Virus record (IMG/VR): IMGVR_UViG_3300046820_000453
Location: 1 to 31,625 of that record
DNA length: 31,625 nt
From: a virus
Strand: one strand, 5' to 3'
In this document: positions 8,687-31,625 of the stretch, piece by piece
How positions within the stretch are numbered: the first letter of the stretch is position 1
Layout: the number at the start of each line of letters is the position of its first letter
The notes under the pieces: generated by a model
The model's database searches: none
Seen by the model: the letters and a program-made list of their open reading frames with translations, nothing else
What the model was told of the DNA's origin: nothing
Made by a program: the position numbers and the translations under genes

Positions 8687-8704
8687 TAAATTTAGATATT
8701 TGGT

Positions 8705-15605: not shown

Positions 15606-17215
15606 TTAACTTCGCTTTCTAAATCATCTAGTTTGCTAATTTCGTCTTCGGTAAATTCTTCACTGTGCTCTTCAACTTCAGGTGTTGTAGTTTCTTCTTC
15701 AAAGAACTTATTAAAGTTAGTACTAGCATTGATAGTCTTTTTACCAACTGCACCACGAGTACCAATAATACTAGTCCAAAATTTACTGTAATCTTCTACA
15801 ATCTTCTCGGCAGTGCCTCGATCACTAGTTGCAAAGATATCATTAATAACGTCTCTAAATGCTAGTCTATCAAATTTTTCTTGAATCAACATAGCAGGAA
15901 ACTTTCCAGCATCGTATTGTCTGTTGGCTTCTTGAACAGCATTCAAGTGCATCCACACATTATGACCCATCAAGATTGCATAACTAAAACTATCCCAACT
16001 AGTACGGTTACTAACCTTACCTAGTTTGTTCATGTCAGGAGGCACTATCCAATCTGCTAGATTATATGGGTCTGGATTTGCAACACCTGGCTTCGGAGTT
16101 CCTGCACCATAGATACATACATCTTTAATTTGAACACCGTCAATAATTGGACTATTATCAAAGTTTTTAAACCATCCGTCTTGCATAACTGCATCGCGGA
16201 ATAGTCTAGTATCTTGACTATATTTTTTATTATCGATACTAGGTAACATACGATAGACCCATTTAGTTCTATCTTCTGTTTCAGTTTGAACATATACCTG
16301 GCCATTAGCAGTAGCAAGGAATGGACTAGCACAATCAAAACTAATTGTAAAGTTTTCATTATGGTGTTTACGTACAGCACGTTGAATGTCTGTTAGTAAG
16401 CAAGCCCATTCTAATTTACTTGTACCTAGAAAGTGCATCCAGTCTTGTTGACCTTTTTCAAGAAGTCCGTCAAAACGTAATGCCACTAATCTCTTCAGTA
16501 CTAAGTGTACATCGCACATATTCTGACCGCCCATTGACCACCCGTTGAAGGCACGATCTCCGTATTGCTTTGGATCACAATACTTCTTCATACGGTCATA
16601 CCAGTCGTCTGCGTCAGTATGATTCTCACCTTGGAGAACGTTTAAGAACTTGCAGTTACCATTACGATTGTTTACGAACCAGTCGTTATTAATGTAAGTG
16701 CCTTGTACTGCTTCTGCATACGTACTAATGCCTGTTGCTTTTTGTCCGTTAGGACTACGAGCCACCCACGCAGGAATATCAAGAATCATACCATAGTCCA
16801 TTAGACTATCCATCCAAGTCAAAACTTGGCTACGTTTCTTTTGTGCCTTAGGACAGTTAGGATCTTTCCAATCTGCTTCCCACACACCTTTACCAATCTG
16901 GAATCCGCCAGAGTCGCCTAATACCCAACTAGTACTACGATCCCTATTACGGAACATGTCTTCGCTTTCATCTACTTTGTTTAAATCTAAGTTAGCGTGA
17001 CCTGCACTATACAAACAATGGTCGTAGTAAAATGCACCTTTATCAGGTTCAAGGTAGTTAAGGCTTTCGACACCTGACTTAAAACTAGCAGGAATTCTAG
17101 CAGGATCTACATAGTTACCATATCGTTGTTTTCCGATAAAGGTGCTATAGAACCCACTAGTCGCTGGCAAAAAGTATGCGTAGTCGTTTTGTGTTGCTGT
17201 TAAATTTTTATTCAA
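15602..17215 (-). CDS. dpdA: DpdA-like 7-deazaguanine DNA transglycosylase
   Basis: A 537-residue protein of the tRNA-guanine transglycosylase superfamily, phage DpdA branch, expected to exchange guanine in DNA for a 7-deazaguanine. The hallmark VLGDSGGFQIGKG carries the active-site Asp (D101). Further TGT-like elements are LDIPAW (the nucleophile-type Asp), FLNVLQGENH, FNGWSMGG (substrate-binding Gly-Gly) and SFDCASP. The C-terminal 40 residues are acidic and disordered. The start is a TTG at 17215, overlapping the DUF2061 stop, with GGGGT five bases upstream; no ATG is available. It follows clamp and polymerase in the same transcript direction. Confidence 0.85.
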   Translation of the reverse strand: MNKNLTATQNDYAYFLPATSGFYSTFIGKQRYGNYVDPARIPASFKSGVESLNYLEPDKGAFYYDHCLYSAGHANLDLNKVDESEDMFRNRDRSTSWVLGDSGGFQIGKGVWEADWKDPNCPKAQKKRSQVLTWMDSLMDYGMILDIPAWVARSPNGQKATGISTYAEAVQGTYINNDWFVNNRNGNCKFLNVLQGENHTDADDWYDRMKKYCDPKQYGDRAFNGWSMGGQNMCDVHLVLKRLVALRFDGLLEKGQQDWMHFLGTSKLEWACLLTDIQRAVRKHHNENFTISFDCASPFLATANGQVYVQTETEDRTKWVYRMLPSIDNKKYSQDTRLFRDAVMQDGWFKNFDNSPIIDGVQIKDVCIYGAGTPKPGVANPDPYNLADWIVPPDMNKLGKVSNRTSWDSFSYAILMGHNVWMHLNAVQEANRQYDAGKFPAMLIQEKFDRLAFRDVINDIFATSDRGTAEKIVEDYSKFWTSIIGTRGAVGKKTINASTNFNKFFEEETTTPEVEEHSEEFTEDEISKLDDLESEVK

Positions 17216-18169: not shown

Positions 18170-18198
18170 AGTATATAGGTTTTTTCAAGAGAAGTCAA
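18170..18198 (-). promoter_or_regulatory. Sigma70-type promoter for sliding clamp
   Basis: TTGACT (18198-18193) and TATACT (18175-18170) are separated by 17 bases. The -35 box lies in the last codons of the polymerase gene. It allows the clamp, needed in larger copy number, to be transcribed beyond read-through from the polymerase. Confidence 0.75.
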
Positions 18199-20794
18199 AC
18201 AATTTATTGAATGTATTTTTCTCTTCTGTACTGGCAATGTCCCAATTAAGAACACCAATTAAGTTTGATAACTTGTTATCAATAATGGTTTGCTCCATTT
18301 CGGCATCATCGAACGGAAGTTCCATGAACCATTTAGGCAAACGCAATTCGTCAACAGGATAAGCAACAGATGTAAATCCAATTGGGTTTGGCTTTAGTTT
18401 ACAAACGATAACTTTCTGTCCGTCTGTAACACCCATCGAATACTTGTCACCGTTCATTCGCTTTAACGTATTCCAGTTAATGCTTGCACGAACGTGTCCA
18501 GGCATGTTGGCTTTACCTGCTTTCTTTTCCTTGTCTTGGTATTCCGTAATGTTGTTAGCACGTTTCGGACTACCTTTCTCCCAACCGGGTCTTGCTTTAA
18601 ATTCAGTACGGAACTTAGTAATATGATCCAATACATCTTCTTCAGTTGCACCTGTTAGTACTTTTTCAAGAACATCGCTTAAGAAGTCTTGAATAAATGC
18701 TGGAGTGTCTGACCTTTTTAGGTCGAGGCCCATTGCTTTAATTTTTCCTGGTTTACCATCAGTATCGGCACGTTTGCCTTCTTTGTCGTAGTAGAGGACA
18801 GCGTAACGCTTTTTAGTGATGAATAACCCTTTGGAAGCAACAATCTCGCGACCTGCTTTGATGACGTCTCCCCTGCTTGGTGGGCAGTGGAATTGTTGTT
18901 CCATGAATTTAACGAATGTTCCATTGACTTCTTCTCCGATTTGATCATAAAGTGTAATTACATTTTCCTTGTTCCACGGAATATGCCCTGCTTCAATGTC
19001 TTTCTTCAGTGTGTTGTACGCTGAAAAATAACAAGAATCTGTGTCACCGTAAATAACTGCTTTACCACGATAGTCGTAATCGCCTGTGATAATCTCGTTA
19101 ACTTTACTAGCCATATGTTTAACAATCTGCCTACCGGTTAGTGTAGTTGATTGTCCAATTCGTTTGTCAAAGAATCTACAACCAGCGTTAAGAATAGCAC
19201 CATACAAACTGTTCAAGTTAATTTTCTTAACCAACTGACGTTTGTCCCAGTATTCTTCTTGTATCTTATCGCCGGACTTGATACATTCTTTTAGAGTAGC
19301 CTGCATTTCTTTACGTTCGGCATACCAACGCTTTAGCAATCCAGGAATAATACCTTCACGTTCATACGTAAAGATTGTGCCATTAGCACTGATCATCCAC
19401 GGTTGGTTGCTGTCAAAGATTAGTTGATATACTTCAGCGGCGCTGTGTACAGTACTATTGCCATCTTCCCAGTCGATAGTAATTTCTGTATCAATACGTT
19501 TGGCCATTACTGCTTCATATTCAATAGTACCAAACATACCTTCCCAAGAAGCCGCAAAGGATTTCTTCTTGAGTGTAGTTTGCTCATGAATAAATGCTTC
19601 AGTGTATGTTTGACGTAACTGTCCAATAATAGTTTCTGGACCCATGTTAAGCGCACGAATGGCACTCGGATACAGACTGTTGATGTCCAATGAGCCAATC
19701 CAGTCTTGAAGACCTTCTTTGGGATAAGCAACATAAGCACCAGCGGCACTGTTATCTGCTTCATCATCGCGCTTGGCTCTATTTGGAACTTGGAAGCCAC
19801 GCTTGTGTGCTTCGTTGATAATAGCCTGTTCAGTAACAGCCACAGCGCCCATAGTAGTCTGCAACAGTACAGTACACTCATGTGCCAGGGTGTTAGCAAG
19901 GTCAATGAACTTTAACTTATTATCCAACTTGTTTAACAAGGCAGTATCTTGTCTGTTGTAAACAATAAACTTGTGGAAGTCATTGTTGTACAATTGATCC
20001 AATGTACCTTCATAAACAGTTTTGTTTTCGCCTACTTCCATTTCACCGATAGCATCTAGTCGATATGTATGGCGTTCTTCATAAGTGTACTTGCGATACA
20101 ATTCAAGACTGTCTAAGTGTACACGACCGATAAAGTCGTATGTAACTGCACTCTTGCCGTACTTTTCATATTCGCGACGTTTATTAACAGTATATGGAAC
20201 GTCATAGCCTTCGCTGTTCCAACCGGAGATAATATCAGCATCTTGAATTAGATCCAAGAATGTTTCTAACATATCGCCTTCGTTGTCAAACAAATGCGTA
20301 TCTGGAATATCTGCAACCAATGCCTTTGCTTGGTCCATGCTTAGTGTCTTAGGAGGCATGGCCAAAGTAATCAGTTTGTCTAACCATTTAAGGTGAACAG
20401 TAATCGCAGTAATCGGCATGAACGCATCTTCTGGAGTGCTATAGCCACGTTCTGGATCAAAGTCCACCTCAATGTCAAAGAAGCAAACGTTTAGTTTTGG
20501 CGCATCTTGATTAAGATAGTTTTCACTAAGGTGTTGGAAGATTGGATTGATGTCGCTTTCATATAGAGTCTTGCCACTGTTAATGGCCTGTTCCTTACGA
20601 AAGTCTTTTGTGCTTTTACATACCACGCGATTAAGAGGATCACCATAAATGCTGGTGTACTTACCTTTAGGATCTGGGTAGTAAAATTGGTAGCGTACAG
20701 GGTGTTCTTTATAAACCCTTAGCCCCTGGTCGTTTCGCTCAACGACTTTAATGGTGTCATTCTCTCTGTCAAAGAGAGCATCTACGTAACTCAT
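18185..20794 (-). CDS. 43: DNA polymerase, family B (gp43-like)
   Basis: An 869-residue replicative polymerase. The 3'-5' exonuclease motifs are FFDIEVD (D107, E109), GWNSEGYDVPY (191-201) and YNRQDTAL (about 279-286). The polymerase motifs are A, SLDINSLYPS (D370); B, KKINLNSLYG (523-532); and C, YGDTDS (582-587). All catalytic residues are intact, so it should synthesise and proofread. The C-terminus ends in NKLFDFS, a possible clamp-binding tail (inference). It is close in length to T4 gp43 (898). AAGGAG precedes the ATG at 20794, immediately after a hairpin that may be a translational operator. Confidence 0.95.
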   Translation of the reverse strand: MSYVDALFDRENDTIKVVERNDQGLRVYKEHPVRYQFYYPDPKGKYTSIYGDPLNRVVCKSTKDFRKEQAINSGKTLYESDINPIFQHLSENYLNQDAPKLNVCFFDIEVDFDPERGYSTPEDAFMPITAITVHLKWLDKLITLAMPPKTLSMDQAKALVADIPDTHLFDNEGDMLETFLDLIQDADIISGWNSEGYDVPYTVNKRREYEKYGKSAVTYDFIGRVHLDSLELYRKYTYEERHTYRLDAIGEMEVGENKTVYEGTLDQLYNNDFHKFIVYNRQDTALLNKLDNKLKFIDLANTLAHECTVLLQTTMGAVAVTEQAIINEAHKRGFQVPNRAKRDDEADNSAAGAYVAYPKEGLQDWIGSLDINSLYPSAIRALNMGPETIIGQLRQTYTEAFIHEQTTLKKKSFAASWEGMFGTIEYEAVMAKRIDTEITIDWEDGNSTVHSAAEVYQLIFDSNQPWMISANGTIFTYEREGIIPGLLKRWYAERKEMQATLKECIKSGDKIQEEYWDKRQLVKKINLNSLYGAILNAGCRFFDKRIGQSTTLTGRQIVKHMASKVNEIITGDYDYRGKAVIYGDTDSCYFSAYNTLKKDIEAGHIPWNKENVITLYDQIGEEVNGTFVKFMEQQFHCPPSRGDVIKAGREIVASKGLFITKKRYAVLYYDKEGKRADTDGKPGKIKAMGLDLKRSDTPAFIQDFLSDVLEKVLTGATEEDVLDHITKFRTEFKARPGWEKGSPKRANNITEYQDKEKKAGKANMPGHVRASINWNTLKRMNGDKYSMGVTDGQKVIVCKLKPNPIGFTSVAYPVDELRLPKWFMELPFDDAEMEQTIIDNKLSNLIGVLNWDIASTEEKNTFNKLFDFS

Positions 20795-21594: not shown

Positions 21595-22263
21595 TTATCG
21601 CTTGTCATCTGGTGAACTGTTTGGCATATGATTTGGACCATAACTAATTCTACTACCTAATATTGTTTCTAGTGCAACATGTAGTGCTGGTCCTGATAGA
21701 TGTTTACGTAACCACTTTTCTGCCAAGTTGTTAATAATCTTTTCATTAGAAGAGATGCGCCCTGCACCTTTAATTTTATCATGCACGTATGCGTGACATG
21801 CTTCATGTACTGCAACTGCAACATCTTTAGCCGCATGGCTATCTAGGTTGGGTATATTGATACTGCCTCCGGGGCCGGACTCTTCTGTATCTCTAAACAT
21901 TGGATCTTCATTACTTTGGTACACATAGTACATGCCTGGTTCCAATTCGTCATCGTCATTAGTAACACGATCTCGTCCTAAGATACTTACAATGGCATCG
22001 TATGCAGACCATAGTGTAGGAGCAGGTGCGCCACCGACTTGTGTAGTAGGAAGCATTGGTTTATCTTCTGGATCAAAGTCTCCCCACCGTTGACGTAATT
22101 CAGCATCACTTGCTTCTGCTTCTTTGATACTTTCGCCAACCCCGCCATCACCACTGTAGCCTGTAGCATAACCGTACCCGCCATAAGGTCCTGGACCATA
22201 GGCCGCCCAGCGAGGCTTCTTTTTACGTTTTCTCTTTTCGGTGATAAATTCTGTTGCTCTCAT
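21595..22263 (-). CDS. Putative packaged HExxH metalloprotease-like protein
   Basis: A 222-residue protein of unknown family. It starts MRATEFITE, a capsid-targeting-like peptide with a hydrophobic-x-Glu site at residue 9. A basic stretch (KRKRKKKPR) and a Gly/Tyr-rich disordered part (20-45) follow. The C-terminal domain contains VAVHEACHAYVH with a HExxH zinc motif (153-157), placed in a long helix as in zincin proteases. A distal third ligand cannot be assigned. If packaged and injected it could cleave host proteins (inference). The start at 22263 overlaps the previous stop as TAATG. It is the last gene before the structured RNA. Confidence 0.65.
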   Translation of the reverse strand: MRATEFITEKRKRKKKPRWAAYGPGPYGGYGYATGYSGDGGVGESIKEAEASDAELRQRWGDFDPEDKPMLPTTQVGGAPAPTLWSAYDAIVSILGRDRVTNDDDELEPGMYYVYQSNEDPMFRDTEESGPGGSINIPNLDSHAAKDVAVAVHEACHAYVHDKIKGAGRISSNEKIINNLAEKWLRKHLSGPALHVALETILGSRISYGPNHMPNSSPDDKR

Positions 22264-22547
22264 TAGCAGTTCCAACGACTTAGTGCTTTGGCTTTAGGAG
22301 TTGGGCGACCTTTCTCATCCTTCATTGGACCTTTGTTACCTGACATACGAGCACAGAAACTCTTACGGCGTTTAGCATCTTTGCTACCTGCTTTAAGTTT
22401 GCTAGGTTTAGTAGTTACTGCTGTTTGTAATTTGCTACCCGGATTCTCACGACGATATGCTTTAACGGCTTTTTGACTTAGACCGTCTGTCTTATCTTTC
22501 TTATTGACTTTATTCCAGTCTTCGCTGATAATTTCTTTAATTTTCAT
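22263..22547 (-). CDS. Small basic virion-type protein with capsid-targeting-like N-terminus
   Basis: A 94-residue, strongly basic protein. It begins MKIKEIISED, with an I-S-E site at residue 9. The rest resembles a recurring marine-phage module: SQKAVKAYRRENPGSKLQTA, then KRRKSFCARMSGNKGPMKDE and a GRPTPKAKALSRWNC end; I recall this KSFCAR...KGRPTPKAKAL..W.C pattern in other T4-like phage proteins. The two Cys (in SFCAR and at the C-terminus) could bind metal. GGAGAG precedes the ATG. Probably a DNA-binding head protein (inference). Confidence 0.65.
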   Translation of the reverse strand: MKIKEIISEDWNKVNKKDKTDGLSQKAVKAYRRENPGSKLQTAVTTKPSKLKAGSKDAKRRKSFCARMSGNKGPMKDEKGRPTPKAKALSRWNC

Positions 22548-22714
22548 TTATTACTCTCCGGTGGGCAACAAAATCTAGGGTCACACCAATCGTATTCTGG
22601 ATTGTAATCTTGACCAATGTAGCCAGCATAGGCTAGACTCATACTAATACCGTATATGGCTAATCCTGTGATAATACTTTTACACAGGGCTGTAAGGGTT
22701 TCTGAAACGGTCAT
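22544..22714 (-). CDS. Small membrane-associated protein, 56 aa
   Basis: A short ORF in the 206-base gap between Dps and the 94-residue gene. The product has an N-terminal polar part, one hydrophobic helix (about 12-34) and a Cys-rich tail (DWCDPRFCCPPESNK). Its stop overlaps the next ATG as ATGA, and GAGG lies nine bases before the ATG at 22714; an ATG two codons upstream (22720) is possible. A helix followed by a Cys/Pro tail is reminiscent of small lysis or envelope proteins, but there is no firm match. Confidence 0.5.
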   Translation of the reverse strand: MTVSETLTALCKSIITGLAIYGISMSLAYAGYIGQDYNPEYDWCDPRFCCPPESNK

Positions 22715-22781
22715 AGCCATCGTCCTCTGGATATACTGGGTAGTCGTTTGGGTTTACTTTAGAGTTGCTCTTAGCATCCAT
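22680..22781 (-). CDS. Possible 33-aa micro-protein
   Basis: A 33-codon ORF (MDAKSNSKVNPNDYPVYPED...) with a good AGGAAAC site seven bases before its ATG, overlapping the end of the Dps gene and the start of the 56-residue ORF. The protein is polar, rich in Pro, Tyr and Asp, and has no recognised domain. Short, tyrosine-rich virion peptides are common in phages, but length gives little support. Confidence 0.35.
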   Translation of the reverse strand: MDAKSNSKVNPNDYPVYPEDDGYDRFRNPYSPV

Positions 22782-23188
22782 TGGTGTTTCCTATGTGCGT
22801 CTTGTCGGCCTGCAAGGAAGTCTGACAAGCCGTGTTCACCTTCTCTTTCAGAAAGTTGAAATACCATTTTAAAAATGTTAGCCATTTTTTCACTATCTTG
22901 TAATAGTTCTGCACACATAGACTTTGCGTCTGGTACATTAGTTTCGTCTTCAATTTGACTTAGCATACTAAAGCGCTGGAAACTAGCAGGAGCATATCCG
23001 CCTGCCTTGCGAATGTTTTCTGCAAAGTCATCGATATTGCCATATACTTCTTCGTAGATACTGCCAAATAAAGCATGGAACTGTTCAAAGAATAATCCTT
23101 CTACGTTCCAGTGAAAGTTTTGTGCTTTGACAAAAAACGCATATTCACTTGCAAATGCTATCTTAAGTGCTTTTCTCAATTCATCCAT
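22754..23188 (-). CDS. dps: Dps-type ferritin (DNA protection during starvation)
   Basis: A 144-residue Dps-family protein. The ferroxidase ligands are at the expected spacing: H26 (NFHWNVEG), H38 (FHALF), D53 and E57 (NIDDFAE), equivalent to His31, His43, Asp58 and Glu62 of Listeria Dps. A dodecamer would oxidise and store iron and protect DNA from peroxide. The length is slightly shorter than bacterial Dps (about 150-170), without a basic DNA-binding tail. The start MDELRKALK at 23188 has GGA upstream; a longer frame to 23236 overlaps the hydrolase gene. It sits in the virion block. Confidence 0.85.
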   Translation of the reverse strand: MDELRKALKIAFASEYAFFVKAQNFHWNVEGLFFEQFHALFGSIYEEVYGNIDDFAENIRKAGGYAPASFQRFSMLSQIEDETNVPDAKSMCAELLQDSEKMANIFKMVFQLSEREGEHGLSDFLAGRQDAHRKHQWMLRATLK

Positions 23189-23192
23189 AATC

Positions 23193-23975
23193 TTATATCC
23201 ATTGCTTAATCTTCTTAGCATGCCAACCAGTAGCACCTAAGTTAATGGGCTGTGGCATAGCAAACAATTTATTCTTCCAGTTATCTACAAAAAGTTTTGT
23301 ATTTTCTGTTACTCCAGTATTTAGCCAATTTACCTTGGGCTGTATGTACTTTTCAATGTATTCTAAGTGCTCGTGCGGAAGTGGATGCCATTCTTCTAGT
23401 GTATCTATAGGGTTCTCGGGAGGGAAACTGCGTATACGATTACGCTTAGTTTCTTCGTCTTGTAGCATTAGATTAAGACTTTCCATCATAGCAGGCCCGT
23501 CAAACTGTGTACGGTACACATCGCAAACTTTATCTATACCTCTATCTCCGCCGTGCATAGGCAAGATATTAAAATGGTATTGGTTTACGCTCAGTGCTTG
23601 TAAACTTAAACGTGTAGACTGTATAAGTGCATGGTCTCGCATGGCATAATACATTGCTGAGCCAAATCCATTAACTGTTCCGTCGTTGTATTGTGTTTGT
23701 GCAAATACATGCTTAGGAGTATGCCAACCACGTTTATCTGTGTATACATCTTCTCTGAAGTAGTTACTCCAGCAGATAAACACATGGTCATTGGGTCCTA
23801 GTTGATTTCTAGCATGACATTCCATTACTTTGTTAGCAATGTATAAGTTGCCCTTGCCGCAACTTCCCCAATTCTCTCCGGAGTAGCCGTGCTGTTCTAC
23901 TTCGTGAATTAGTATGTCAGCCCAGGTGGGATAAAAGTATTGTGTAAAACTACAACCAAAGCACCATATTCTCAT
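23193..23975 (-). CDS. SGNH/GDSL-like hydrolase
   Basis: A 260-residue protein beginning MRIWCFGCSFTQYF: GCSFT (7-11) is the block I variant of SGNH hydrolases found in many phages, with Ser9 as nucleophile. A central CWSNYFREDVY segment resembles the SGNH asparagine block. A C-terminal EEWHPLPHEHLEYIEKYI supplies the Asp/Glu-x-x-His pair. It could deacylate or deacetylate surface glycans or peptidoglycan; the substrate is unknown. It has no signal peptide. It is followed after four bases by dps. Confidence 0.7.
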   Translation of the reverse strand: MRIWCFGCSFTQYFYPTWADILIHEVEQHGYSGENWGSCGKGNLYIANKVMECHARNQLGPNDHVFICWSNYFREDVYTDKRGWHTPKHVFAQTQYNDGTVNGFGSAMYYAMRDHALIQSTRLSLQALSVNQYHFNILPMHGGDRGIDKVCDVYRTQFDGPAMMESLNLMLQDEETKRNRIRSFPPENPIDTLEEWHPLPHEHLEYIEKYIQPKVNWLNTGVTENTKLFVDNWKNKLFAMPQPINLGATGWHAKKIKQWI

Positions 23976-23989
23976 ATGGTATATTTACA

Positions 23990-24217
23990 TTAGGCTAGTA
24001 GTTTGGCGGCAATTTCTAGAGCGGCTATTAGTTTAGATTTAAGAACAATGTCATTAACATCTTGTTCTAAGCCGTCAACACGCCCTAAGTCTGTTAATAA
24101 TTCTGCATATTCATCACGACTAATTTGTCCTGTTTGAAACGCATTAACGTAACTTTCTAATAGTTGAGCACGTTCCATTGCCCAAGGTCTGCCACTGTTG
24201 TGTAGATCTTCTAACAT
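23990..24217 (-). CDS. Small helical phage protein, 75 aa
   Basis: A 75-residue helical protein with NAFQTGQISRDEYAELLTDLGR, a pattern seen in short proteins of T4-like marine phages (from memory), and a hydrophobic C-terminal helix (KLIAALEIAAKLLA) that might insert in membrane. No function is known. Its ATG overlaps the lipoprotein stop by one base, and it precedes the SGNH hydrolase. Confidence 0.65.
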   Translation of the reverse strand: MLEDLHNSGRPWAMERAQLLESYVNAFQTGQISRDEYAELLTDLGRVDGLEQDVNDIVLKSKLIAALEIAAKLLA

Positions 24218-24609
24218 TATTTGTTTCTCCCTTGCGCCGCTGTTGCAATGGCATCACTTTCTTTGATCATAATCTTAACTTTACTTTCGCAAAAGAATTT
24301 ACTAGAGCCTTCGCGATCAGCAAGTCCCTTAAGAGTAATGTCAAACACTTTAGTAATCTTAGTCATGTCTTCATTTTTACGGCTGTCAGAATATAACTCA
24401 AGCCATTGTACTCTTGCTTGTAGTGAAGATAGTTGTTGTTTTAATTTAACTGGATCAGAACAATCCAATTGTCTTGCTTGCTGACGTATGTCAGTAACTG
24501 CGGCTGCTTCGTTTGGATCCCATTTGCTTGGGAAGAAACTAGTAATTGAGCCTACTGCCGCACAGCCCGAAAGTAAAACTACTAGGGACAGTGCGACTAG
24601 TTTTTTCAT
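24217..24609 (-). CDS. Putative lipoprotein, 130 aa
   Basis: A 130-residue protein with a typical lipoprotein signal: basic MKK, hydrophobic run and lipobox LSGC (C16). The mature part is helical and charged, with two more Cys (LDCSDP and FFCESK) that may form a disulfide, and a coiled-coil-like stretch (QQLSSLQARVQWLELYSDS). It would be lipidated at C16 in the host envelope. Possible roles are outer-membrane spanin (larger than typical Rz1) or superinfection exclusion; no inner-membrane partner is apparent next to it. Confidence 0.75.
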   Translation of the reverse strand: MKKLVALSLVVLLSGCAAVGSITSFFPSKWDPNEAAAVTDIRQQARQLDCSDPVKLKQQLSSLQARVQWLELYSDSRKNEDMTKITKVFDITLKGLADREGSSKFFCESKVKIMIKESDAIATAAQGRNK

Positions 24610-25445
24610 GATTGCATTCCGTCTAAAATTTTAATAGACAAACTCTTATTGCCTAGATGTACTTCGTGTATCTTACCGCCTACATCGACTTGTAATACAT
24701 ACGGATTTGTAGTGTCAACGATCTTACCAGTAAGATGTTGCTCGGGCTTGTTCCACATACCAAACTTTACCATTTGGCCTACTTGGAACTTGCTTTTTGG
24801 TTTTTCCATTTCAGAAACTAAATCTCTAAAATGAGCAATAGATTCTGCAGGTTGTTTTGTATCAGGAGTTGTGTTTGGTTTTTCAGTCTTGGTTTTTTCA
24901 GCATCGGCTGCTTTTTGTTTCTCACTATCTATCCAATACTTGTTATGTTTTTCTAAGTGAGCCTCGGCCTCTTTAGGACTCATCTTAACTTTCCATTCTT
25001 CTGCTCTCCAACGGAACGTTGGCTGTCCTAAGTACGATGCTTGTGCATGTAAATTTAAAAACTCTTGTATATCGGCTTCGTCACCTACATGCTTTTCTAC
25101 CCAACGCTTAATGCCTGCTTGTATACTGTTTTCGTCTGCGGCAAATAAATCTTTAATTACTTGTATTAAACTAGGTGCGGCATACGTACCGGCCACACCG
25201 GCTGCTAGTGCAGTTTCTGCACCTAAAGATGTTAATGCTGTAGCAAAGCCGCCGGCAGATGCCATTAATGGTGCTAACAATCCACTGTATGCTAAACCAA
25301 TTCCAACTGTACCGCTGGCAAGCCACGGGAATGCCGTAGCAACTTTACGACCAAGATATCGTAATACTTTAGAAGTCATACTTGTTGGGTCGAGAGTTTC
25401 GTCGACTTGTTCGGCTTCCGTTAGATAGTCTTTAAAGGATTTCAT
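24606..25445 (-). CDS. Packaged-type protein with hydrophobic segment and SH3-like tail
   Basis: A 279-residue protein. The N-terminus MKSFKDYLTEAEQ has L-T-E followed by Ala at residues 8-11, the best match here to the T4 prohead-protease cleavage rule (hydrophobic-x-Glu, then Ala/Gly). Residues 30-95 are strongly hydrophobic and Gly/Ala-rich and may form membrane helices. A charged linker follows (about 165-205), then a C-terminal beta-rich module (KFQVGQMVKFGMWNKPEQHL...) like a small SH3 barrel. If injected it might insert in the host membrane (inference). The start at 25445 follows the stop by one base, with GGAAAG upstream. Confidence 0.65.
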   Translation of the reverse strand: MKSFKDYLTEAEQVDETLDPTSMTSKVLRYLGRKVATAFPWLASGTVGIGLAYSGLLAPLMASAGGFATALTSLGAETALAAGVAGTYAAPSLIQVIKDLFAADENSIQAGIKRWVEKHVGDEADIQEFLNLHAQASYLGQPTFRWRAEEWKVKMSPKEAEAHLEKHNKYWIDSEKQKAADAEKTKTEKPNTTPDTKQPAESIAHFRDLVSEMEKPKSKFQVGQMVKFGMWNKPEQHLTGKIVDTTNPYVLQVDVGGKIHEVHLGNKSLSIKILDGMQS

Positions 25446-25446
25446 T

Positions 25447-26283
25447 TTATTTCTTTCCAGTTGGCACACAATTGTCTACTGTCTTGCCGCCTTTCTTTTT
25501 AGTGCCCATGCGCTTGTAACCATCCCAACAAGCCTTACCATCTACACCTTTTTGTTTTGCTTCTTCTAGTGCAAAGTAATCTTTAATAGATAAACTTAGG
25601 CTTTCATTTTTTGGCTCCCAGTATCTACCTGGACCAAATGCCTTGTCAAGTATTGAACTCTTAGTTTTAGAGTACCATCTGCCGCTTTTAGTTTTCTTTA
25701 AGCCGTAATATTCTGCATCGGTTTCTTTACCAGCAGGCACATTATAAAAATACATGCCTCTACTTGGAGCAGTTGGTGCACGGTATTGACGAGGTTCTTC
25801 ATCCCAACCTTCGTCATTAGCACCGCCGTCTAATTGATAGGCTAGACTATCACGCTTACCCATACCTGCTACACTACTATCGTAGTCTCGTTGATAAGCA
25901 TCACGGCGACCTCTATAACCTGCTTCGTCTACTTGGTTATTGTCTACACTGTCAAACAAGTCTGGTTGTAAAATTTCTTTACCTACTGCATGGTAAGCAG
26001 TCATAAACTCATTGAACTTGGACATGACTTCTTTTAACAACTGTTCGTTGGCATTGATTTTAATTTTATCAAGATTGCCCATTACTAAGTCGTTGATGTG
26101 ATCGGCGGCCATAAGAAAATCATTAACGTCACCGCCAATGCTATCTTCATCAAAACTGACAACAGATTCTTTGGCAACTGCTGATTCATTAACAATAGAC
26201 AAGAACTTCTTCATATCAGAAGTTCCTGCTTTTGGAGTTGATGTAGCATTATCAAATGCTGATAGAATCTTTTTCATGTCCAT
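25447..26283 (-). CDS. Virion or prohead protein with C-terminal Cys module
   Basis: A 278-residue protein. The N-terminus repeats a short MKK(I/F)LS motif (MDMKKILSAF and DMKKFLSIVNES, residues 1-33). A helical domain (45-115) follows, then a disordered Arg/Tyr/Asp segment, a YYGLKKTKSGRWYSKTKSS module, and a C-terminal KACWDGYKRMGTKKKGGKTV...C module. I recall that last module in many T4-like marine phage virion proteins. Its role is unknown; scaffold core or internal protein is likely. AGGA is nine bases before the ATG at 26283. Confidence 0.65.
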   Translation of the reverse strand: MDMKKILSAFDNATSTPKAGTSDMKKFLSIVNESAVAKESVVSFDEDSIGGDVNDFLMAADHINDLVMGNLDKIKINANEQLLKEVMSKFNEFMTAYHAVGKEILQPDLFDSVDNNQVDEAGYRGRRDAYQRDYDSSVAGMGKRDSLAYQLDGGANDEGWDEEPRQYRAPTAPSRGMYFYNVPAGKETDAEYYGLKKTKSGRWYSKTKSSILDKAFGPGRYWEPKNESLSLSIKDYFALEEAKQKGVDGKACWDGYKRMGTKKKGGKTVDNCVPTGKK

Positions 26284-26288
26284 GGCTA

Positions 26289-27386
26289 TTATCCTAGCAA
26301 CTTCTTAGTTAGTGCTCTGATGCGAGTTAAGTCTGCGCTTTCTAGTACGGACTCTTTAACCGACTCATTCTTCTTAGCAAAAGGATTAACACCTTTCTTT
26401 GGACCTGCTTTCTTATCAGCAACGGCCTTTTTCATTGGCTCTTTCTTGTCACCGTCTTTGTCCATATCTAAAAAGTCTGGCTTAGCACCTTCTGCTTTAT
26501 AAGAGTCTTTACGATCTTTGTTAGCAGTCTTATCGGCCTTTTGACTTTGCCATCCTTGGACCTGTGTAACTTTTACTTTAGCGCCACTTGGTAGCGTGTC
26601 AGTGCGCTCTTTCTTCTTTGCTGGAGCACGAGTCTCATCGGCTTCTTTAACTTTTTCGTCTTTCTTGGCAGGACGCTTACCGCCAGTTTCTTTTTCTAGA
26701 CGTTGTAGTAATTCTTCGTCATCTGGACCTGTAATAGCCTTGCCAACTTTCTTAGCAACTTTCTTAACTGTGTCCATTACACCTTCGTTCTTGGCTTTCT
26801 TCTTGGCTTTCTTAACATCGCTGTCATCTCCGCCGTCGTCGAATGTGCTAGACTTGCGTGTGTATTGTGTGACACCAGGCTTGATTTCTTTCTTATCAAA
26901 TTTGCCAGTGCCTTTCTTTTCTTTAGAAGCCTTGATCATATCGTCCCAACCTTCTTCGACTTTTTCGTCTTTCTTGGCAGGCTTCTTCATCATGGCTTTT
27001 TGTTTTGCACCTTCCAAAAGTGCTTGTAGTCGTTGTTCGTAGTTCATAGATTCTTCCATTTCGATTGGGGTTTCGTCGTCTTCTTCAGACACTTCATTTT
27101 TTGAGGATGCTACAGGACTGTCACCTGTAATATCATCGAGACTAGTAGCAGTGGCACCACCACCGAATTTTACTTGATATTCCATATAGTGATAAACAGA
27201 GTCTAGGTAATCAGCAGATTTTGTAATCTTTGCTTGTACCCATCCTTCTAATTCCTGATTCTCTTGAACCATCTGGAATAGTTTCATAGCATTCTTGGCA
27301 GCACGATACAAGTCCGCACGGGCCATTGCGCCCTCGCCGTTACTTACTAATTGTGCTTGCATTTGCGGTTTCATGTCGACTGGCAT
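26289..27386 (-). CDS. Virion structural/internal protein, Lys-rich, with repeats
   Basis: A 365-residue protein. Residues 20-75 contain ADLYRAAKNAMKLFQMVQEN and a following helix to YHYMEYQ, a conserved domain I recall in marine T4-like virion proteins. From 115 on it is low complexity, Lys/Glu/Asp-rich, with PAKKDEKV twice, and a DMDKDGDKKEPM segment resembling a calcium-binding loop. The end (ADLTRIRALTKKLLG) is a short helix shared in style with the right-edge gene. CAGGAG precedes the ATG. Probably a head core or packaged protein (inference). Confidence 0.7.
   Translation of the reverse strand: MPVDMKPQMQAQLVSNGEGAMARADLYRAAKNAMKLFQMVQENQELEGWVQAKITKSADYLDSVYHYMEYQVKFGGGATATSLDDITGDSPVASSKNEVSEEDDETPIEMEESMNYEQRLQALLEGAKQKAMMKKPAKKDEKVEEGWDDMIKASKEKKGTGKFDKKEIKPGVTQYTRKSSTFDDGGDDSDVKKAKKKAKNEGVMDTVKKVAKKVGKAITGPDDEELLQRLEKETGGKRPAKKDEKVKEADETRAPAKKKERTDTLPSGAKVKVTQVQGWQSQKADKTANKDRKDSYKAEGAKPDFLDMDKDGDKKEPMKKAVADKKAGPKKGVNPFAKKNESVKESVLESADLTRIRALTKKLLG
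26650..26672 (-). repeat. Direct repeat copy 1 (23 bp) within virion protein gene
   Basis: A 23-base stretch here is identical to 26959-26981. It encodes the PAKKDEKV peptide of the Lys-rich virion protein. It is in frame in both places and so is a coding duplication. Confidence 0.75.
26959..26981 (-). repeat. Direct repeat copy 2 (23 bp) within virion protein gene
   Basis: The second copy of the 23-base repeat, in the same reading frame and 309 bases from the first. The flanking sequence differs, so only the short peptide is duplicated. Confidence 0.75.
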
Positions 27387-27407
27387 TCTAATCTCCTGGT
27401 ATAATAT

Positions 27408-28205
27408 TTATCGTTTAATACTGCCGCCAGTCATTAAGTTTCCACCCTTCATGTCTAGTGCATTAGTCCCGGGCTTCTGCATCTTGGGTCTTTTGTTCTT
27501 ATAAACTGCGCCTACGGCAACATTTCCTGCGCTTGTAGAGCCCGCTGTAGCAGTTTCTGCTACACCTTGCACGTCTCTAGTATCAATCTCTACTCTCTTA
27601 GCAGTTCCTGTAGTATACCCTTGTTCGGCACCGTAAGCATATTTTCCAAGACCAAATACATAACTTACCCACCCATCATATTCTGGATCGTTGCCCTGGA
27701 CCATAGTGTAATCATCAATATCTACAATATCTCCAATTGCTTCCACCCACTTCATTCCAAGTTGTTCTAGTTTAACTGGGCCTTTATATCCACGTTTTTT
27801 AAGAATCTTTGCCAACTGCATATTGAATTCTTGATCCAAGCCTTCCGCCACACCTTCTTTTGACATACGGTCAAGAGCACGACTAATACCCTGTCTACGC
27901 TTTTCTGCTGTTTTTTTCTGATCTACGTGATAACTTCTTAGAGAAGGATCATGTTTGGATTGCTTTGCAGAAAAGTCTGCGTGTCCGTGAGCATCGACTG
28001 CTTTTGTTACATAGCGATCTAATGTTGATTTACTGACTTCTGCTATTTCTTTGTTCTTGTGTTTGACATCGCCTTGCTTCATAGCCTTCTTTTTATCTTT
28101 GTGTTGGCCGGCACCGCCCATCTTGGCGTTCTTGGCTACAAAGTTACGTGGCTTTGATGCATCTACTTTTTGTGTGCTTTCGCTAATAATCTCGTGGACT
28201 TTCAT
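27408..28205 (-). CDS. Packaged-type protein with internal VAE sites
   Basis: A 265-residue protein. It starts MKVHEIISES, a capsid-targeting-like peptide with I-S-E at residues 7-9. A basic, His/Lys-rich part (25-110) follows. The central folded domain (about 125-215, EFNMQLAKILKKRGYKG to VFGLGKYAYG) may be the functional unit. Two further GVAE motifs (SKEGVAEGLDQE and VQGVAETATAG) flank that domain and could be prohead-protease sites releasing it (inference). The C-terminal Gly/Ser/Lys tail is disordered. AAGGAA precedes the ATG. Function unknown. Confidence 0.65.
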   Translation of the reverse strand: MKVHEIISESTQKVDASKPRNFVAKNAKMGGAGQHKDKKKAMKQGDVKHKNKEIAEVSKSTLDRYVTKAVDAHGHADFSAKQSKHDPSLRSYHVDQKKTAEKRRQGISRALDRMSKEGVAEGLDQEFNMQLAKILKKRGYKGPVKLEQLGMKWVEAIGDIVDIDDYTMVQGNDPEYDGWVSYVFGLGKYAYGAEQGYTTGTAKRVEIDTRDVQGVAETATAGSTSAGNVAVGAVYKNKRPKMQKPGTNALDMKGGNLMTGGSIKR

Positions 28206-28226
28206 ATAAAATTCCTTATACTGTAT

Positions 28227-28583
28227 TTATTTTGTAGGATTCATTGCTTTAAGTGCATCGGCTGCTTTGTACACTTGTGCATAATCGCTAGGAGAATCAA
28301 TATCGTGTATTCCTAGCCCTAGGCGTTTTAGCAATGGAAGCATCTTGGCTTCTTCTTCCTCACTACCGAATGCCAGTACAGTATGCGGAGCACCTTTGTT
28401 AAACATTTCAGGATTGGCATCATCTAAATCACTAATAACCATACCTAACTTATACCAATCGTAAACATCGCTTACATCAACTAGTGTTGTGCCTTTAGGG
28501 AATGGTATCAACTGTGGGCCAGGACCAGTGGGAATATCCCCGCGAAGCCCAGCACTTTCTCTCATAAATTCTTTTGCTCTCAT
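28227..28583 (-). CDS. Packaged-type small protein, 118 aa
   Basis: A 118-residue protein starting MRAKEFMRES, with F-M-R-E at 6-9, like the other capsid-targeting-type N-termini nearby. The remaining sequence is a small alpha/beta domain (YDWYKLGMVISDLDD, TVLAFGSEEEEAKMLPLLKR, LGIHDIDSPSDYAQVY) without recognised family. Head-core and internal proteins of this size are injected by T4. GGAAAA precedes the ATG. Short AT-rich gaps lie on either side. Confidence 0.6.
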   Translation of the reverse strand: MRAKEFMRESAGLRGDIPTGPGPQLIPFPKGTTLVDVSDVYDWYKLGMVISDLDDANPEMFNKGAPHTVLAFGSEEEEAKMLPLLKRLGLGIHDIDSPSDYAQVYKAADALKAMNPTK

Positions 28584-28584
28584 A

Positions 28585-28788
28585 TTATTTTCCTACAGGC
28601 TTTTCACCAGTTAAGTAAGGCTTACTAAACCACAACTGAAACCATTCAGGAGTACCCGGTTTAATGTTATGCTTACGTTCTAGTTCACGCTTTTCTGTTC
28701 CAGTTACGCTGATATTAATACCCTCATATGGCTGGTATCCTTTGTATTCGTTAACACCCGCAAGTTTCTTTAAGTCGTCTAGATTCAT
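28585..28788 (-). CDS. Small phage protein, 67 aa
   Basis: A 67-residue protein starting MNLDDLKKLAGVNEYKGY. This LxxLKxLAG-type N-terminus resembles the C-terminal SRIKELSGLK of the right-edge gene. The remainder has RELERKHNIKPGTPEWFQLWF, possibly a short helix-turn with an aromatic binding patch. Its ATG overlaps the nucleotidyltransferase stop as ATGA. Function unknown. Confidence 0.6.
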   Translation of the reverse strand: MNLDDLKKLAGVNEYKGYQPYEGINISVTGTEKRELERKHNIKPGTPEWFQLWFSKPYLTGEKPVGK

Positions 28789-30071
28789 TTTACAAGTTTA
28801 AATGCTTTTAAATTTTTACGTGGAGTACCTTTGTTTACATCTGGAGTACTATTTTGTTTAGTAATAATACCAACACCGGCTGCTTCTTCGCCCATGTGTT
28901 TGAAATAATTAACTTGACGTTCACGTTTTTCAGCACCTGCTTTACTAGGATACTTACCTAAGTTCTTACCTTTCTTAGATACTAACTCATATTCACTACC
29001 GACTTGTTTGATAGTTTCTGTTTTAGGTGGATTAACTGGCACTGTTTTGTACACACGTTTTACAGGATCCCATACAGTTTTACGAGGACCTTCTTTAGCC
29101 ATTTGCCCAACACGTTTTACAGTATCTTGATAATCTGAATCGTACTTTGCTTCTGCTTCAGCCACTGCTTTTTGAAAACCTTTACCAGGTACCCACCCAG
29201 CAACAGGCTTGCACTTACACTTGCTTGGATCACATGAGCAATTAGTTGAACCGCATTGTGGGCAACGTTTTTCAGATGCTTCTACGACATCTTCTTTCTT
29301 AGCACGACCTGCTTTCATGTTAGCCAACCAGTGTGCTAGTTGTCCTTTACGTCCGCCTTGTTTGGCAGTTTTACGTAGACTACTCACACTTGCTTTGGTG
29401 TTAATACCGTGACGTTTGCTGTCGCCCTTGTCTTGTGGATTCTTCCCATCGGCAAAGTTTTCCGCCACACCTTCTACAGGAGCAGGTACTTTCTTCTTTG
29501 CTACTTTTTTAGGAGCATTGGCATATGGCATCAAGTATTCTGCTACTAGATCAAAGAATGGTTTTCCTGCAACTGGAGTATCTGCACTAACACCCGCGGC
29601 TTGTGTAAATGCTTCTCTGTCACCTTTACTAACTGCATCACGTAATGCTGTGGCGCTACTTAAACGTGGTGTTGGCTTTTGTGTAATGTTTTTAAAATTA
29701 TAGAAACCGTGTGCGCCTTCTTTACCATTATATTGTACAATAGTTTTAGTGACCCACTCTTCATCTGTTAAGCATAATAGTGTAGCATCTGGATACTGTT
29801 CGTATACTTTGCTGGCCAATGTTAACCAACTAGTTTCAGCAACAATATGACTTTCAACTTCAGGCCACACTGTTTTCATTGCTTCAACTTTAACATCAAA
29901 CGGTAGTGGATCTTTTGGCCCAACCGTGCTTTCATTAGTGCCCACAAACCATACGGGACTCTTGCTGGCCAATTCCCAAGCAGCCTTGTGTCCCTTGTGA
30001 GGAGGATTGAAACGTCCAAAGATAATTGCTACTTCAGTGCTTCGTGCTTCAAATAGATTTCTTAAAAACAT
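28785..30071 (-). CDS. Nucleotidyltransferase (HxGH) with long modular tail, packaged type
   Basis: A 428-residue protein. The start MFLRNLFEARS has L-F-E followed by Ala, a good prohead-protease-type site. Residues 10-190 form a cytidylyltransferase-fold domain: FGRFNPPHKGH (HxGH, 25-28) and RLSSATALR (135-143, the family's ISST.IR). It would transfer a nucleotide to a small substrate such as NMN, pantetheine phosphate or a polyol phosphate. After a GVAE motif come recurring modules: NTKASVSSLRKTAKQGG with AHWLANMKAGRAKK, a Cys-rich CPQCGSTNCSCDPSKCKC zinc-type cluster, and a GKYPSKAGAEKRERQV segment. AAGGAA precedes the ATG. Confidence 0.75.
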   Translation of the reverse strand: MFLRNLFEARSTEVAIIFGRFNPPHKGHKAAWELASKSPVWFVGTNESTVGPKDPLPFDVKVEAMKTVWPEVESHIVAETSWLTLASKVYEQYPDATLLCLTDEEWVTKTIVQYNGKEGAHGFYNFKNITQKPTPRLSSATALRDAVSKGDREAFTQAAGVSADTPVAGKPFFDLVAEYLMPYANAPKKVAKKKVPAPVEGVAENFADGKNPQDKGDSKRHGINTKASVSSLRKTAKQGGRKGQLAHWLANMKAGRAKKEDVVEASEKRCPQCGSTNCSCDPSKCKCKPVAGWVPGKGFQKAVAEAEAKYDSDYQDTVKRVGQMAKEGPRKTVWDPVKRVYKTVPVNPPKTETIKQVGSEYELVSKKGKNLGKYPSKAGAEKRERQVNYFKHMGEEAAGVGIITKQNSTPDVNKGTPRKNLKAFKLVK

Positions 30072-30080
30072 TTTTATTCC

Positions 30081-31328
30081 TTACTGTGGTGTCCAGCGTT
30101 TACGCGGCACTAGTTTAACGTTACCAAATTGCTTGCCTTGGTCAGCATAACGCACACGACCTTCGCCATTTGTGTCCCATATTTCGCCTTGCTCGCCTTC
30201 AATTTGATCAATAATAATATCTTTCATATCTTGAATTTGACGCACTAGACTAAAGATTGCCTCCAATGCTTTTGGATTGGTCGCAGTCTTTTCTTGAATC
30301 TTGGCCTGCTTGCCGGGACTAACTTTGCTAGTAGATAACCAATTGTTAAAGTGGTCAGCACTTAAACTATCCAATGCTTTGGCTTTGGCTGTTTGATTTA
30401 CATAAGTGTAAATGATATTCTTAAGATCGCTTAGTCCAGCAGTATCTGCAAGGAACGTGTCGATTTGTTGTGCGTGTTGACCCAAGTAACGTTCAACAGC
30501 ATCTACAGCCTTTGTATCTACCTTAACAGGCTTGCTGTTATAGATAGGACCTAATACAATCAATTTAGAGTTACTGTTGAACTGACTAAAGTCACTAATT
30601 GGTTTTTGTGAACTATCAGGCATACCCCATTGTGGGAAAAATGCGTGACCTACAACCATAACATCTGCTTGCGCTATACGCTTACCGAGGTCGCTATTTT
30701 TGCGGACATGGTAACATGTTTGTGATTTAGGGTTAGGACAGAATGTGTAAACACCTTCCTTATCTAGTTGCGGACGCTGTAGGAACAATCCATCAGCATA
30801 AACAAAACCAACAAAGTCTTTAGGTGTACCAGCATCAAAGTAATTGTACAAGTTAGCAAATTGATCTGCAAACTGTTCACGTGCTTTTACTTCGTCTGGA
30901 GTTTTAGGACTACCTGACTTGTTTAAAATAAAATCTTTAATTTCTTCTGGGCTAGATGTCTTAGCACCTTTGCTCCAACCATTGTGTCCACCTAACAACA
31001 ATGGACCGCCTTTAGTCTCACGTCCCCAATAGATTTGAGGATTGCCGTCCCACTTCATACGAATACTTTGTGAGCCTTGGCTACTTGCAAAGTCTTTAAT
31101 GTGACTTAATGCTTCTAATGTACCTGCACTGCCGTGAAAGAAAACTAAATCTTCCAAGTGATTAAATGCACGACCTAATTGCTTAGGAGCCTCTGCTTCG
31201 TTAACGCTTTCGTTTTTCTTTCTGCCAGCACAATGTGCCTTTTGACTAAACCCTTTAGGATTAGAACAGTCAATAGAGCGCTTATACTTTGGACTCCATT
31301 TTTCAGTAAAGAGTTCTCTTAGTTTCAT
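30081..31328 (-). CDS. Ligase/nucleotidyltransferase-like protein, packaged type
   Basis: A 415-residue protein. It starts MKLRELFTEK with L-F-T-E at 6-9. A short Cys module follows (SIDCSNPKGFSQKAHCAGRK). The main domain has RMKWDGNPQIYWGRE: KWDG (92-95) matches the KxDG nucleotidyl-acceptor motif I of DNA/RNA ligases. FVGFVYADGLF fits motif III, and near the C-terminus EGRVRYAD (motif IV-like) and KLVPRKRW (motif V-like) complete the set. I recall the family as DUF6267. It may seal or adenylylate nucleic acid ends. Its ATG overlaps the previous stop as ATGA. Confidence 0.7.
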   Translation of the reverse strand: MKLRELFTEKWSPKYKRSIDCSNPKGFSQKAHCAGRKKNESVNEAEAPKQLGRAFNHLEDLVFFHGSAGTLEALSHIKDFASSQGSQSIRMKWDGNPQIYWGRETKGGPLLLGGHNGWSKGAKTSSPEEIKDFILNKSGSPKTPDEVKAREQFADQFANLYNYFDAGTPKDFVGFVYADGLFLQRPQLDKEGVYTFCPNPKSQTCYHVRKNSDLGKRIAQADVMVVGHAFFPQWGMPDSSQKPISDFSQFNSNSKLIVLGPIYNSKPVKVDTKAVDAVERYLGQHAQQIDTFLADTAGLSDLKNIIYTYVNQTAKAKALDSLSADHFNNWLSTSKVSPGKQAKIQEKTATNPKALEAIFSLVRQIQDMKDIIIDQIEGEQGEIWDTNGEGRVRYADQGKQFGNVKLVPRKRWTPQ

Positions 31329-31625
31329 TTTAGGCCACTCAATTCTTTAATGCGACTTAGTTCGCTACTTTCTTGTTTAACTGGTAATTCTTTCCAGTTA
31401 GGATCTTGACGAGCACGATCTAATAATGCTGCCGCTTCGTCTTTAGGCAATGCAGCCATAATTGCTTCAACACTACCTAAGTCTTTAGCGCCGCCGCTCT
31501 GTCCAAACAATGTTTGAGCAATGGTGTCCATGTCGTCGCTAACTAACTGACCTTTCTTACCATCAGGTGTTCGGCTAAACAAGCCTTGCCACGCACTCCA
31601 CATATACCCCTTGTTTTTAGCAAGG
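31325..31625 (-). CDS. C-terminal part of a longer protein, truncated by right edge
   Basis: The frame is open to the right edge and has no good start: an ATG at 31603 lies mid-sequence (LAKNKGY-MWSAWQG) without a binding site, so this is probably the last 99 residues of a larger protein. Visible are an aromatic SAWQGLFSRTP part, then DTIAQTLFGQSGG, a helical DEAAALLDRAR segment, and a SRIKELSGLK end. Function unknown; its position suggests a virion or head-assembly gene. Its stop overlaps the ligase-like ATG. Confidence 0.65.
   Translation of the reverse strand, partial: LAKNKGYMWSAWQGLFSRTPDGKKGQLVSDDMDTIAQTLFGQSGGAKDLGSVEAIMAALPKDEAAALLDRARQDPNWKELPVKQESSELSRIKELSGLK

What the first reader, a model, noticed from the sequence alone, without database searches (positions are those of the whole stretch)
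21595..31328. Array of at least seven genes with T4-type capsid-targeting N-termini
Seven proteins in this block begin with a 7-10 residue peptide of one design: Met, one or more basic residues, a hydrophobic stretch, then hydrophobic-x-Glu. They are MRATEFITE, MKIKEIISE, MKSFKDYLTE(A), MKVHEIISE, MRAKEFMRE, MFLRNLFE(A) and MKLRELFTE. T4 internal proteins carry an N-terminal capsid-targeting sequence (IPIII MKTYQEFIAE, from memory) cut by gp21 after hydrophobic-x-Glu. The bodies are unrelated (ligase-like, HxGH nucleotidyltransferase, HExxH, membrane-active, unknown), so a shared leader on diverse cargo suggests an injected effector set. In 0-21.4 kb only one small gene (4709-4933) has a similar start.
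Basis: partly seen in the sequence, partly recalled or inferred. Interest (0 to 1): 0.85.

Follow-up and report, generated by a model that had tools for sequence, protein, structure and literature searches.

The report
Capsid-entry tags on phage cargo proteins
A run of otherwise unrelated phage proteins share a short removable "pack me into the head" tag like the one on phage T4's injected proteins, and the same head-protease cut signal also separates small lysine-rich building blocks inside these proteins, which points to a modular way of loading protein cargo into phage heads.

Summary
Seven of 17 genes at 21.6-31.6 kb start with an 8-10-residue leader ending hydrophobic-x-Glu. Chance expects about 0.4 in the window. 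Homologs keep the leader (DUF6267 45/48, cytidylyltransferase 30/34, DUF6321 19/22), while homologs of other window genes lack it. A leader matrix trained only on jumbo relatives ranks T4 internal proteins IPII and IPIII 3rd and 4th of 253 T4 genes. Close relatives encode a gp21-type protease and a capsid protein cut site, YLSE|SATAG.

Three additions. (1) The same hydrophobic-x-Glu signal precedes swappable Lys/Cys-rich modules inside these proteins (74/75 contexts have Glu; none of 8 podo/siphophage DUF6321 copies do), so they look like head polyproteins. (2) Several carry a copy of the mature capsid protein's N-terminal arm. (3) In two cyanophages with published virion proteomes, all seven homologs of array proteins or modules are virion proteins.

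Best reading: T4-type capsid-targeting leaders on packaged, probably injected, cargo. Cleavage and injection in this phage are inferred. The individual effector functions are unproven.

The parts
31302..31328 (-). leader MKLRELFTE of the DUF6267 ligase-like protein
   Evidence: 45/48 homologs keep a leader
31197..31301 (-). module C (KWSPKYKRSIDCSNPKGFSQKAHCAGRKKNESVNE), inserted between leader and enzyme with a hydrophobic-x-Glu at both ends (LFTE| and SVNE|)
   Evidence: relatives without the module join the leader directly to AEAPKQLGRAFNH
30081..31328 (-). DUF6267 protein, 415 aa; KWDG motif; ATP-dependent RNA/DNA-ligase-like fold predicted
30048..30071 (-). leader MFLRNLFE|A of the cytidylyl/NMN-adenylyltransferase-like protein
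   Evidence: 30/34 homologs keep a leader
28785..30071 (-). cytidylyltransferase-like protein (HxGH), homologs are virion proteins in cyanophages
   Evidence: PMC3037559, PMC9602691, PMC10665884
29298..29459 (-). module F (NFADGKNPQDKGDSKRHG...) directly behind EGVAE|
28227..28583 (-). 118-aa leader protein (MRAKEFMRE|S), unknown body
   Evidence: 11/14 homologs keep a leader
27408..28205 (-). 265-aa mosaic protein: leader MKVHEIISE|S, module G, and C-terminal capsid-protein-arm copy
27513..27554 (-). copy of the mature major-capsid-protein N-arm, GVAE|TATAGSTSAGNVAV
26289..27386 (-). Lys-rich companion protein without leader; cyanophage homologs are virion proteins
25447..26283 (-). companion protein with an internal leader-like DMKKFLSIVNE|S and the C-terminal Cys/Lys module D (GVDGKACWDGYKRMGTKKKGGKTVDNC)
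24606..25445 (-). 279-aa leader protein (MKSFKDYLTE|A) with a Gly/Ala-rich hydrophobic stretch, unknown
22263..22547 (-). 94-aa leader protein (MKIKEIISE|D) = DUF6321; cyanophage homologs are virion proteins
21595..22263 (-). 222-aa leader protein (MRATEFITE|K) with a HExxH metallopeptidase-like motif

Best explanation
The shared N-termini are T4-type capsid-targeting sequences. During head assembly the leader docks the protein into the prohead core; the phage's gp21-type (S77) protease then cuts behind hydrophobic-x-Glu, and the mature protein stays with the DNA in the head and is probably delivered with it. The same cut signal also stands in front of small Lys/Cys-rich modules placed between or behind the enzyme domains. 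One precursor would therefore yield an enzyme plus one or more DNA-friendly peptides, and modules can be exchanged because recombination at the cut site keeps every product intact. Some products also carry a copy of the mature capsid protein's N-terminal arm, which could dock them to the inner shell or to the protease. Shown here: leaders, their conservation, the boundary rule, the arm copies, protease and capsid protein in relatives. Taken from published data: virion presence of homologs in cyanophages. Inferred: cleavage in this phage, injection, individual functions.
For: Enrichment over shuffles and internal Met; homologs keep the leader while other genes' homologs lack it; T4 IPII/IPIII ranked 3-4 of 253 by an independent matrix, none in T7; T4-derived pattern recovers IPII, IPIII, Alt and gp24 in T4; gp21 in 7 of 16 records with scaffold and capsid protein beside it; P1 Glu at 74/75 internal module contexts, P3 hydrophobic 59/74 vs 28% background (counting distinct triplets once: 43/44 and 34/43); 0/8 podo/siphophage DUF6321 copies have the site; module C inserted with the site at both ends; basic bodies, p = 2e-9; capsid-arm copies; 7/7 homologs in virions of S-CREM2 and S-SCSM1; 6 of the 7 best S-CREM2 leaders are virion proteins, p = 8e-4; earlier S-SM1 proteomics found the cytidylyltransferase in virions (PMC3037559).
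Against: No cleavage data for any of these proteins. In S-SCSM1 the leader alone is not enriched among virion proteins (1/47 vs 1/200), and many module-bearing virion proteins there have no leader. Atu_ph07, the second-closest named polymerase relative, has no such array at the syntenic place. The window holds neither gp21 nor the capsid gene, so those come from relatives. About 20% of internal boundaries lack a hydrophobic P3. The sequences are related, so p-values are optimistic.
Confidence: 0.8

Rival explanations
1. The leaders target the proteins to the prohead and are cut, but the internal hydrophobic-x-Glu motifs are just conserved first residues of the modules and are not cleaved; products are single multi-domain virion proteins.
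For: Glu precedes a module in nearly all contexts, as an intrinsic module residue would; about 20% of boundaries lack the hydrophobic P3. In S-CREM2 and S-SCSM1 module-bearing proteins are reported as whole ORFs.
Against: DUF6321 in podo/siphophages has no Glu there (0/8), so Glu is not intrinsic to that fold. The P3 hydrophobic preference (79-80% vs 28%) extends into unrelated upstream sequence. Module C is bounded by sites on both sides. The motif equals the site in the capsid protein.
Confidence: 0.3
2. The shared N-terminus is an amphipathic docking helix to another structure (neck, portal or membrane) and is not removed by a protease.
For: The Met-basic-hydrophobic pattern alone would suit a docking helix; AF2 gives no structure for the leader (pLDDT about 34 over residues 1-10), compatible with a disordered docking peptide.
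Against: It does not explain the fixed terminal Glu, the close match with T4 propeptides, or the identity of the following sequence with the mature capsid N-arm.
Confidence: 0.1
3. Chance or translation-initiation bias (K-rich, E-rich early codons) produces look-alike N-termini.
For: Short motif; some chance matches occur, e.g. 4709-4933 and clamp-loader MKELWVE.
Against: Counts 4-16 times over shuffles in the window, G001, G009 and G007; conserved in homologs of the leader families and absent from homologs of other genes in the same operon.
Confidence: 0.02

Closest known systems
T4 internal proteins IPI-III and Alt with capsid-targeting sequence (Mullaney and Black 1996, reviewed in PMC9026906; anti-restriction functions in PMC12373910)
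   Same: Short N-terminal propeptide, hydrophobic-x-Glu end, unrelated basic bodies, clustered genes, gp21-type protease in the phage group.
   Different: Many more families (40 in relatives), large enzymes, several cut signals per protein, module insertion at the cut site, copies of the capsid arm; hosts and targets unknown; cleavage not shown.
Cyanophage virion-associated NMNAT/cytidylyltransferase and other packaged enzymes (S-SM1 PMC3037559, S-SCSM1 PMC9602691, S-CREM2 PMC10665884)
   Same: Homologous cytidylyltransferase, DUF6321, 26289-family and module D, found in virions by mass spectrometry.
   Different: The passages of those reports that I read do not describe a leader or cut-site rule; different phage families; no DUF6267 homolog was found in S-CREM2 or S-SCSM1 at the sensitivity used.
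phiKZ-like ejection proteins (SPN3US gp53/gp54, PMC10052503, PMC5694885)
   Same: Prohead protease removes N-terminal propeptides from packaged proteins; multiple cuts inside long propeptides.
   Different: Most propeptides are over 100 residues (two are 20-24) and the motif is A-x-E, against 8-10 residues and hydrophobic-x-E here.
T4 scaffold core proteins gp22/gp67 cut into retained peptides
   Same: One precursor cut by gp21 into several peptides, some staying in the head (PMC9026906).
   Different: Relatives here have their own acidic gp22-like scaffold gene beside gp21; the array modules are basic.

Membership tests
T4-type capsid-targeting (CTS) internal proteins | short (about 7-19-residue) N-terminal leader of the CTS pattern ending in hydrophobic-x-Glu | tested here: met
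T4-type capsid-targeting (CTS) internal proteins | one leader shared by sequence-unrelated bodies | tested here: met
   (40 body families in relatives)
T4-type capsid-targeting (CTS) internal proteins | phage encodes a gp21/S77 protease and a capsid protein with the same site | tested here: met
   met in relatives (capsid site); the 31.6-kb window itself does not reach those genes
T4-type capsid-targeting (CTS) internal proteins | basic bodies | tested here: met
   +0.022 vs -0.020 net charge per residue, p = 2e-9
T4-type capsid-targeting (CTS) internal proteins | protein present in the virion | tested here: inconclusive
   7/7 homologs in virions of two cyanophages; no proteome for this phage; leader alone not enriched in S-SCSM1
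T4-type capsid-targeting (CTS) internal proteins | leader sufficient for encapsidation and removed by the protease | not testable with these tools
   needs fusion, packaging and N-terminal mapping experiments
T4-type capsid-targeting (CTS) internal proteins | mature protein injected with the DNA | not testable with these tools
   inferred from T4 only
phiKZ-like ejection proteins | A-x-E site and mostly long (over 100 residues) propeptides | tested here: not met
   leaders 8-10 aa, hydrophobic P3 (definition)
ATP-dependent RNA/DNA ligase fold (for DUF6267) | KxDG motif, invariant | tested here: met
   K92 W93 D94 G95 invariant in 40 sequences
ATP-dependent RNA/DNA ligase fold (for DUF6267) | ligase/nucleotidyltransferase fold | tested here: inconclusive
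   nearly all top 50 chains are ligases, best Z 6.3, below the level counted as clear; Foldseek has no match at E <= 0.001
Cytidylyltransferase-like (HxGH) family | profile match and HxGH motif | tested here: met
   (phrog_3041 4e-14; TIGR00125 3e-4, below its curated cut-off); sequence GRFNPPHKGH

The most novel reading that the evidence does not exclude
These are polyproteins of the phage head: gp21-type cut sites separate exchangeable Lys/Cys-rich peptides and enzymes, and copies of the capsid protein's mature N-terminal arm anchor or present the products at the inner shell. It would be a general, so far undescribed cargo-loading grammar of T4-superfamily phages in lakes and oceans, through which new enzymes become virion proteins by recombination at the cut site.
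Probability: 0.5. Interest if true: 0.82.

Novelty: new variant of a known kind. Interest (0 to 1): 0.68.

Why it matters
It gives a readable sequence rule for which phage proteins are loaded into the head, and probably injected, in abundant aquatic T4-superfamily phages, where most cargo is annotated only as hypothetical. It would explain why cytidylyltransferase/NMNAT-like enzymes keep turning up in cyanophage virions. It makes two questions directly testable: are head proteins made as cut-up polyproteins, and does mimicry of the capsid arm place cargo inside the shell? The tags would also be natural delivery handles for laboratory phages.

Tried and rejected
Chance explanation: rejected. 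Early-gene exception 4709-4933: homologs lack the leader. Transfer of virion evidence from Atu_ph07 (virion proteome, PMC6102473): its syntenic place holds tail-fibre-like genes and no leaders, so nothing could be transferred. Leader enrichment in the S-SCSM1 virion proteome: not significant. Late-promoter motif TATAAATA: found before two leader genes near the head genes (G001 154705, G013 109803) but too rare to test. PADLOC search of array proteins: no hits. Pfam on ten other leader cargo families: only a peptidoglycan-binding domain in one. One family-search call failed through a wrong coordinate. DUF6321 model too weak for a fold search (pLDDT 67). PDB sequence search with DUF6267: nothing usable. 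Module F query against named phages: no match. First DUF6267 alignment missed the initial Met and was redone.

Full report
What the window is. The window is a 31,625-base IMG/VR viral record with all called genes on the minus strand. Its B-family DNA polymerase (18185-20794) is closest among named phages to Sinorhizobium phage Phosso (49%), Agrobacterium phage Atu_ph07 (46%) and then the RaK2/121Q-type jumbo phages of the T4 superfamily. Close IMG/VR relatives include 167-383-kb records; I fetched five of them whole and called genes with a simple finder.

The observation. All seven leaders exist, each behind an ATG. With a strict pattern the window has 6 of 45 genes against 0.38 in shuffles, and all five relatives exceed the shuffle mean, although G008 and G007 lie just above the highest shuffle and G013 lies within the shuffle range. 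The strongest evidence is conservation: 45/48 DUF6267 homologs, 30/34 cytidylyltransferase homologs, 19/22 DUF6321 homologs, 11/14 and 4/4 for two further families keep a leader, against 3 hits in several hundred homologs of the other listed window genes, including genes inside the same cluster such as Dps, the lipoprotein and the 26289 and 28585 families.

Is it T4-like? A position matrix trained only on the jumbo relatives ranks T4 IPII and IPIII 3rd and 4th of 253 T4 genes; T7 has no gene above threshold. A pattern written from T4 IPIII finds IPII, IPIII, Alt, gp24, gp2, 61.1 and one other gene in T4 and none in T7. Relatives carry an S77/gp21 protease next to a portal, a gp22-like scaffold and the capsid protein MSELLES...RKYLSE|SATAGATSAGNVATLNRVILPVIRR, whose cut site follows by alignment with T4 gp23; cleavage there was not measured. 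Leader-bearing bodies are basic, as T4 internal proteins are (PMC9026906).

Cut sites inside the proteins. The array proteins are mosaics of short Lys/Cys-rich modules (DUF6321; WS.KYK.SI.CS.PKGFSQ; NFADGK; GVDGK.CW.GYK; others) that move between unrelated proteins. A module follows either the leader's Glu or an internal Glu. In 75 distinct internal contexts, 74 have Glu at P1, and 59 of those 74 have a hydrophobic residue at P3 against 28% for other Glu residues in the same proteins. Counting each module/triplet combination once: 43/44 and 34/43 (p = 8e-12). In the window's DUF6267 protein a 35-residue module sits between leader and enzyme with the signal at both ends, LFTE|KWSPKYK...ESVNE|AEAPKQLGRAFNH, while relatives without the module join leader and enzyme directly, FKE|AEAPKQLGRAFNH. 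Control: DUF6321 also occurs in podophages and a siphophage; eight such copies have neither leader nor Glu, whereas in the six T4-like cyanophage proteins examined where DUF6321 was found, Glu precedes it every time. That podophages of this kind lack a gp21-type protease is general knowledge, not tested here.

Copies of the capsid arm. The mature N-terminal arm of the relatives' capsid protein (SATAGATSAGNVA) recurs right behind leaders in small array proteins of G008, G009 and G013, internally in G001 and at the C-terminal end of window gene 27408-28205. In cyanophages the capsid arm is different, and an array protein there carries a copy of that different arm: S-CREM2 gp160 (virion-detected) and the 61-aa S-SCSM1 gp275. 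Scores of 14-24 compare with at most 12 in six shuffles. No copy was seen in G007, in T4, or in the parts searched of three cyanophages.

Are the proteins in virions? Published virion proteomes help indirectly. In S-CREM2 (PMC10665884, Table 3) the seven best leader scores of 219 genes include six virion proteins: a kinase, gp13, gp156, a SAM hydrolase, gp17 and the cytidylyltransferase MKNFSSFLTE|A (p = 8e-4); some of these seven scores are weak. In S-SCSM1 (PMC9602691) the NMNAT starts MKSFLQFLKE|A and is in the virion, but leaders are not enriched overall. All seven homologs of array proteins or modules found in the two phages are virion proteins: DUF6321 twice, cytidylyltransferase twice, the 26289 family twice, module D once. 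For S-SCSM1, virion status was read from the record's own labels (47 entries; the paper reports 45). S-SM1 virions also contain the cytidylyltransferase (PMC3037559).

Cargo. DUF6267 has an invariant KWDG and a confident model (pLDDT 87, leader disordered). Nearly all of the 50 best structural matches are RNA or DNA ligases, with best Z 6.3, so a ligase-like fold is likely but not proven. The cytidylyltransferase, a HExxH protein and a Gly/Ala-rich hydrophobic protein are the other recognisable bodies. No defence-system model matched.

Judgement. It works like the T4 capsid-targeting system, and the sequence criteria for membership are met; cleavage, encapsidation in this phage and injection could not be tested. 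The extensions (cut-site-delimited modules, capsid-arm copies, about 40 cargo families in relatives) make it a new variant of a known kind. Limits: sequences are related, so p-values are optimistic; protease and capsid gene come from relatives; matrix scores within the jumbo group are circular, so the T4 and S-CREM2 tests carry the weight.

Noticed in passing
window 22754-23188: Dps/ferritin-like protein inside the array, conserved in relatives, without leader (weak NCBIfam Dps matches).
   Followed up: partly
window 6836-7684, 10442-11215, 15602-17215: By eye these look like QueE-, FolE- and transglycosylase (DSGGFQ)-like genes, suggesting 7-deazaguanine DNA modification; not tested.
   Followed up: no
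T4 (L250-L253) 18966-19130 and 63557-63919: T4 genes 61.1 (MKTFKEFIKE|D) and vs.6 (MKAYQILE|G, GrcA-like) score as high as IPII/IPIII for a capsid-targeting leader.
   Followed up: no
S-CREM2 (L263) 7704-10313: Virion-detected Cas9-like protein carries a leader-like LRFASFMAE|A about 25 residues from its annotated start, perhaps a misplaced start codon.
   Followed up: no
window 25447-26283 N-terminus: Two leader-like stretches in a row (MDMKKILSAFD... and DMKKFLSIVNE|S), conserved in relatives.
   Followed up: no
window 28585-28788, 26289-27386, 31325-31603 and relatives: A recurring DL.+I..L.GL-type peptide (LSRIKELSGLK, LTRIRALTKKLLG, LDDLKKLAGVNE) near protein ends; possibly another core-binding tag.
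   Followed up: no
Pelagibacter phages HTVC168P (L246) and HTVC201P (L258): In these podophages DUF6321 is encoded between the scaffold and capsid genes, suggesting a head role for the module even without leaders.
   Followed up: partly
window 23193-23975: Possible SGNH/GDSL-esterase-like gene within the array without a leader; not tested.
   Followed up: no
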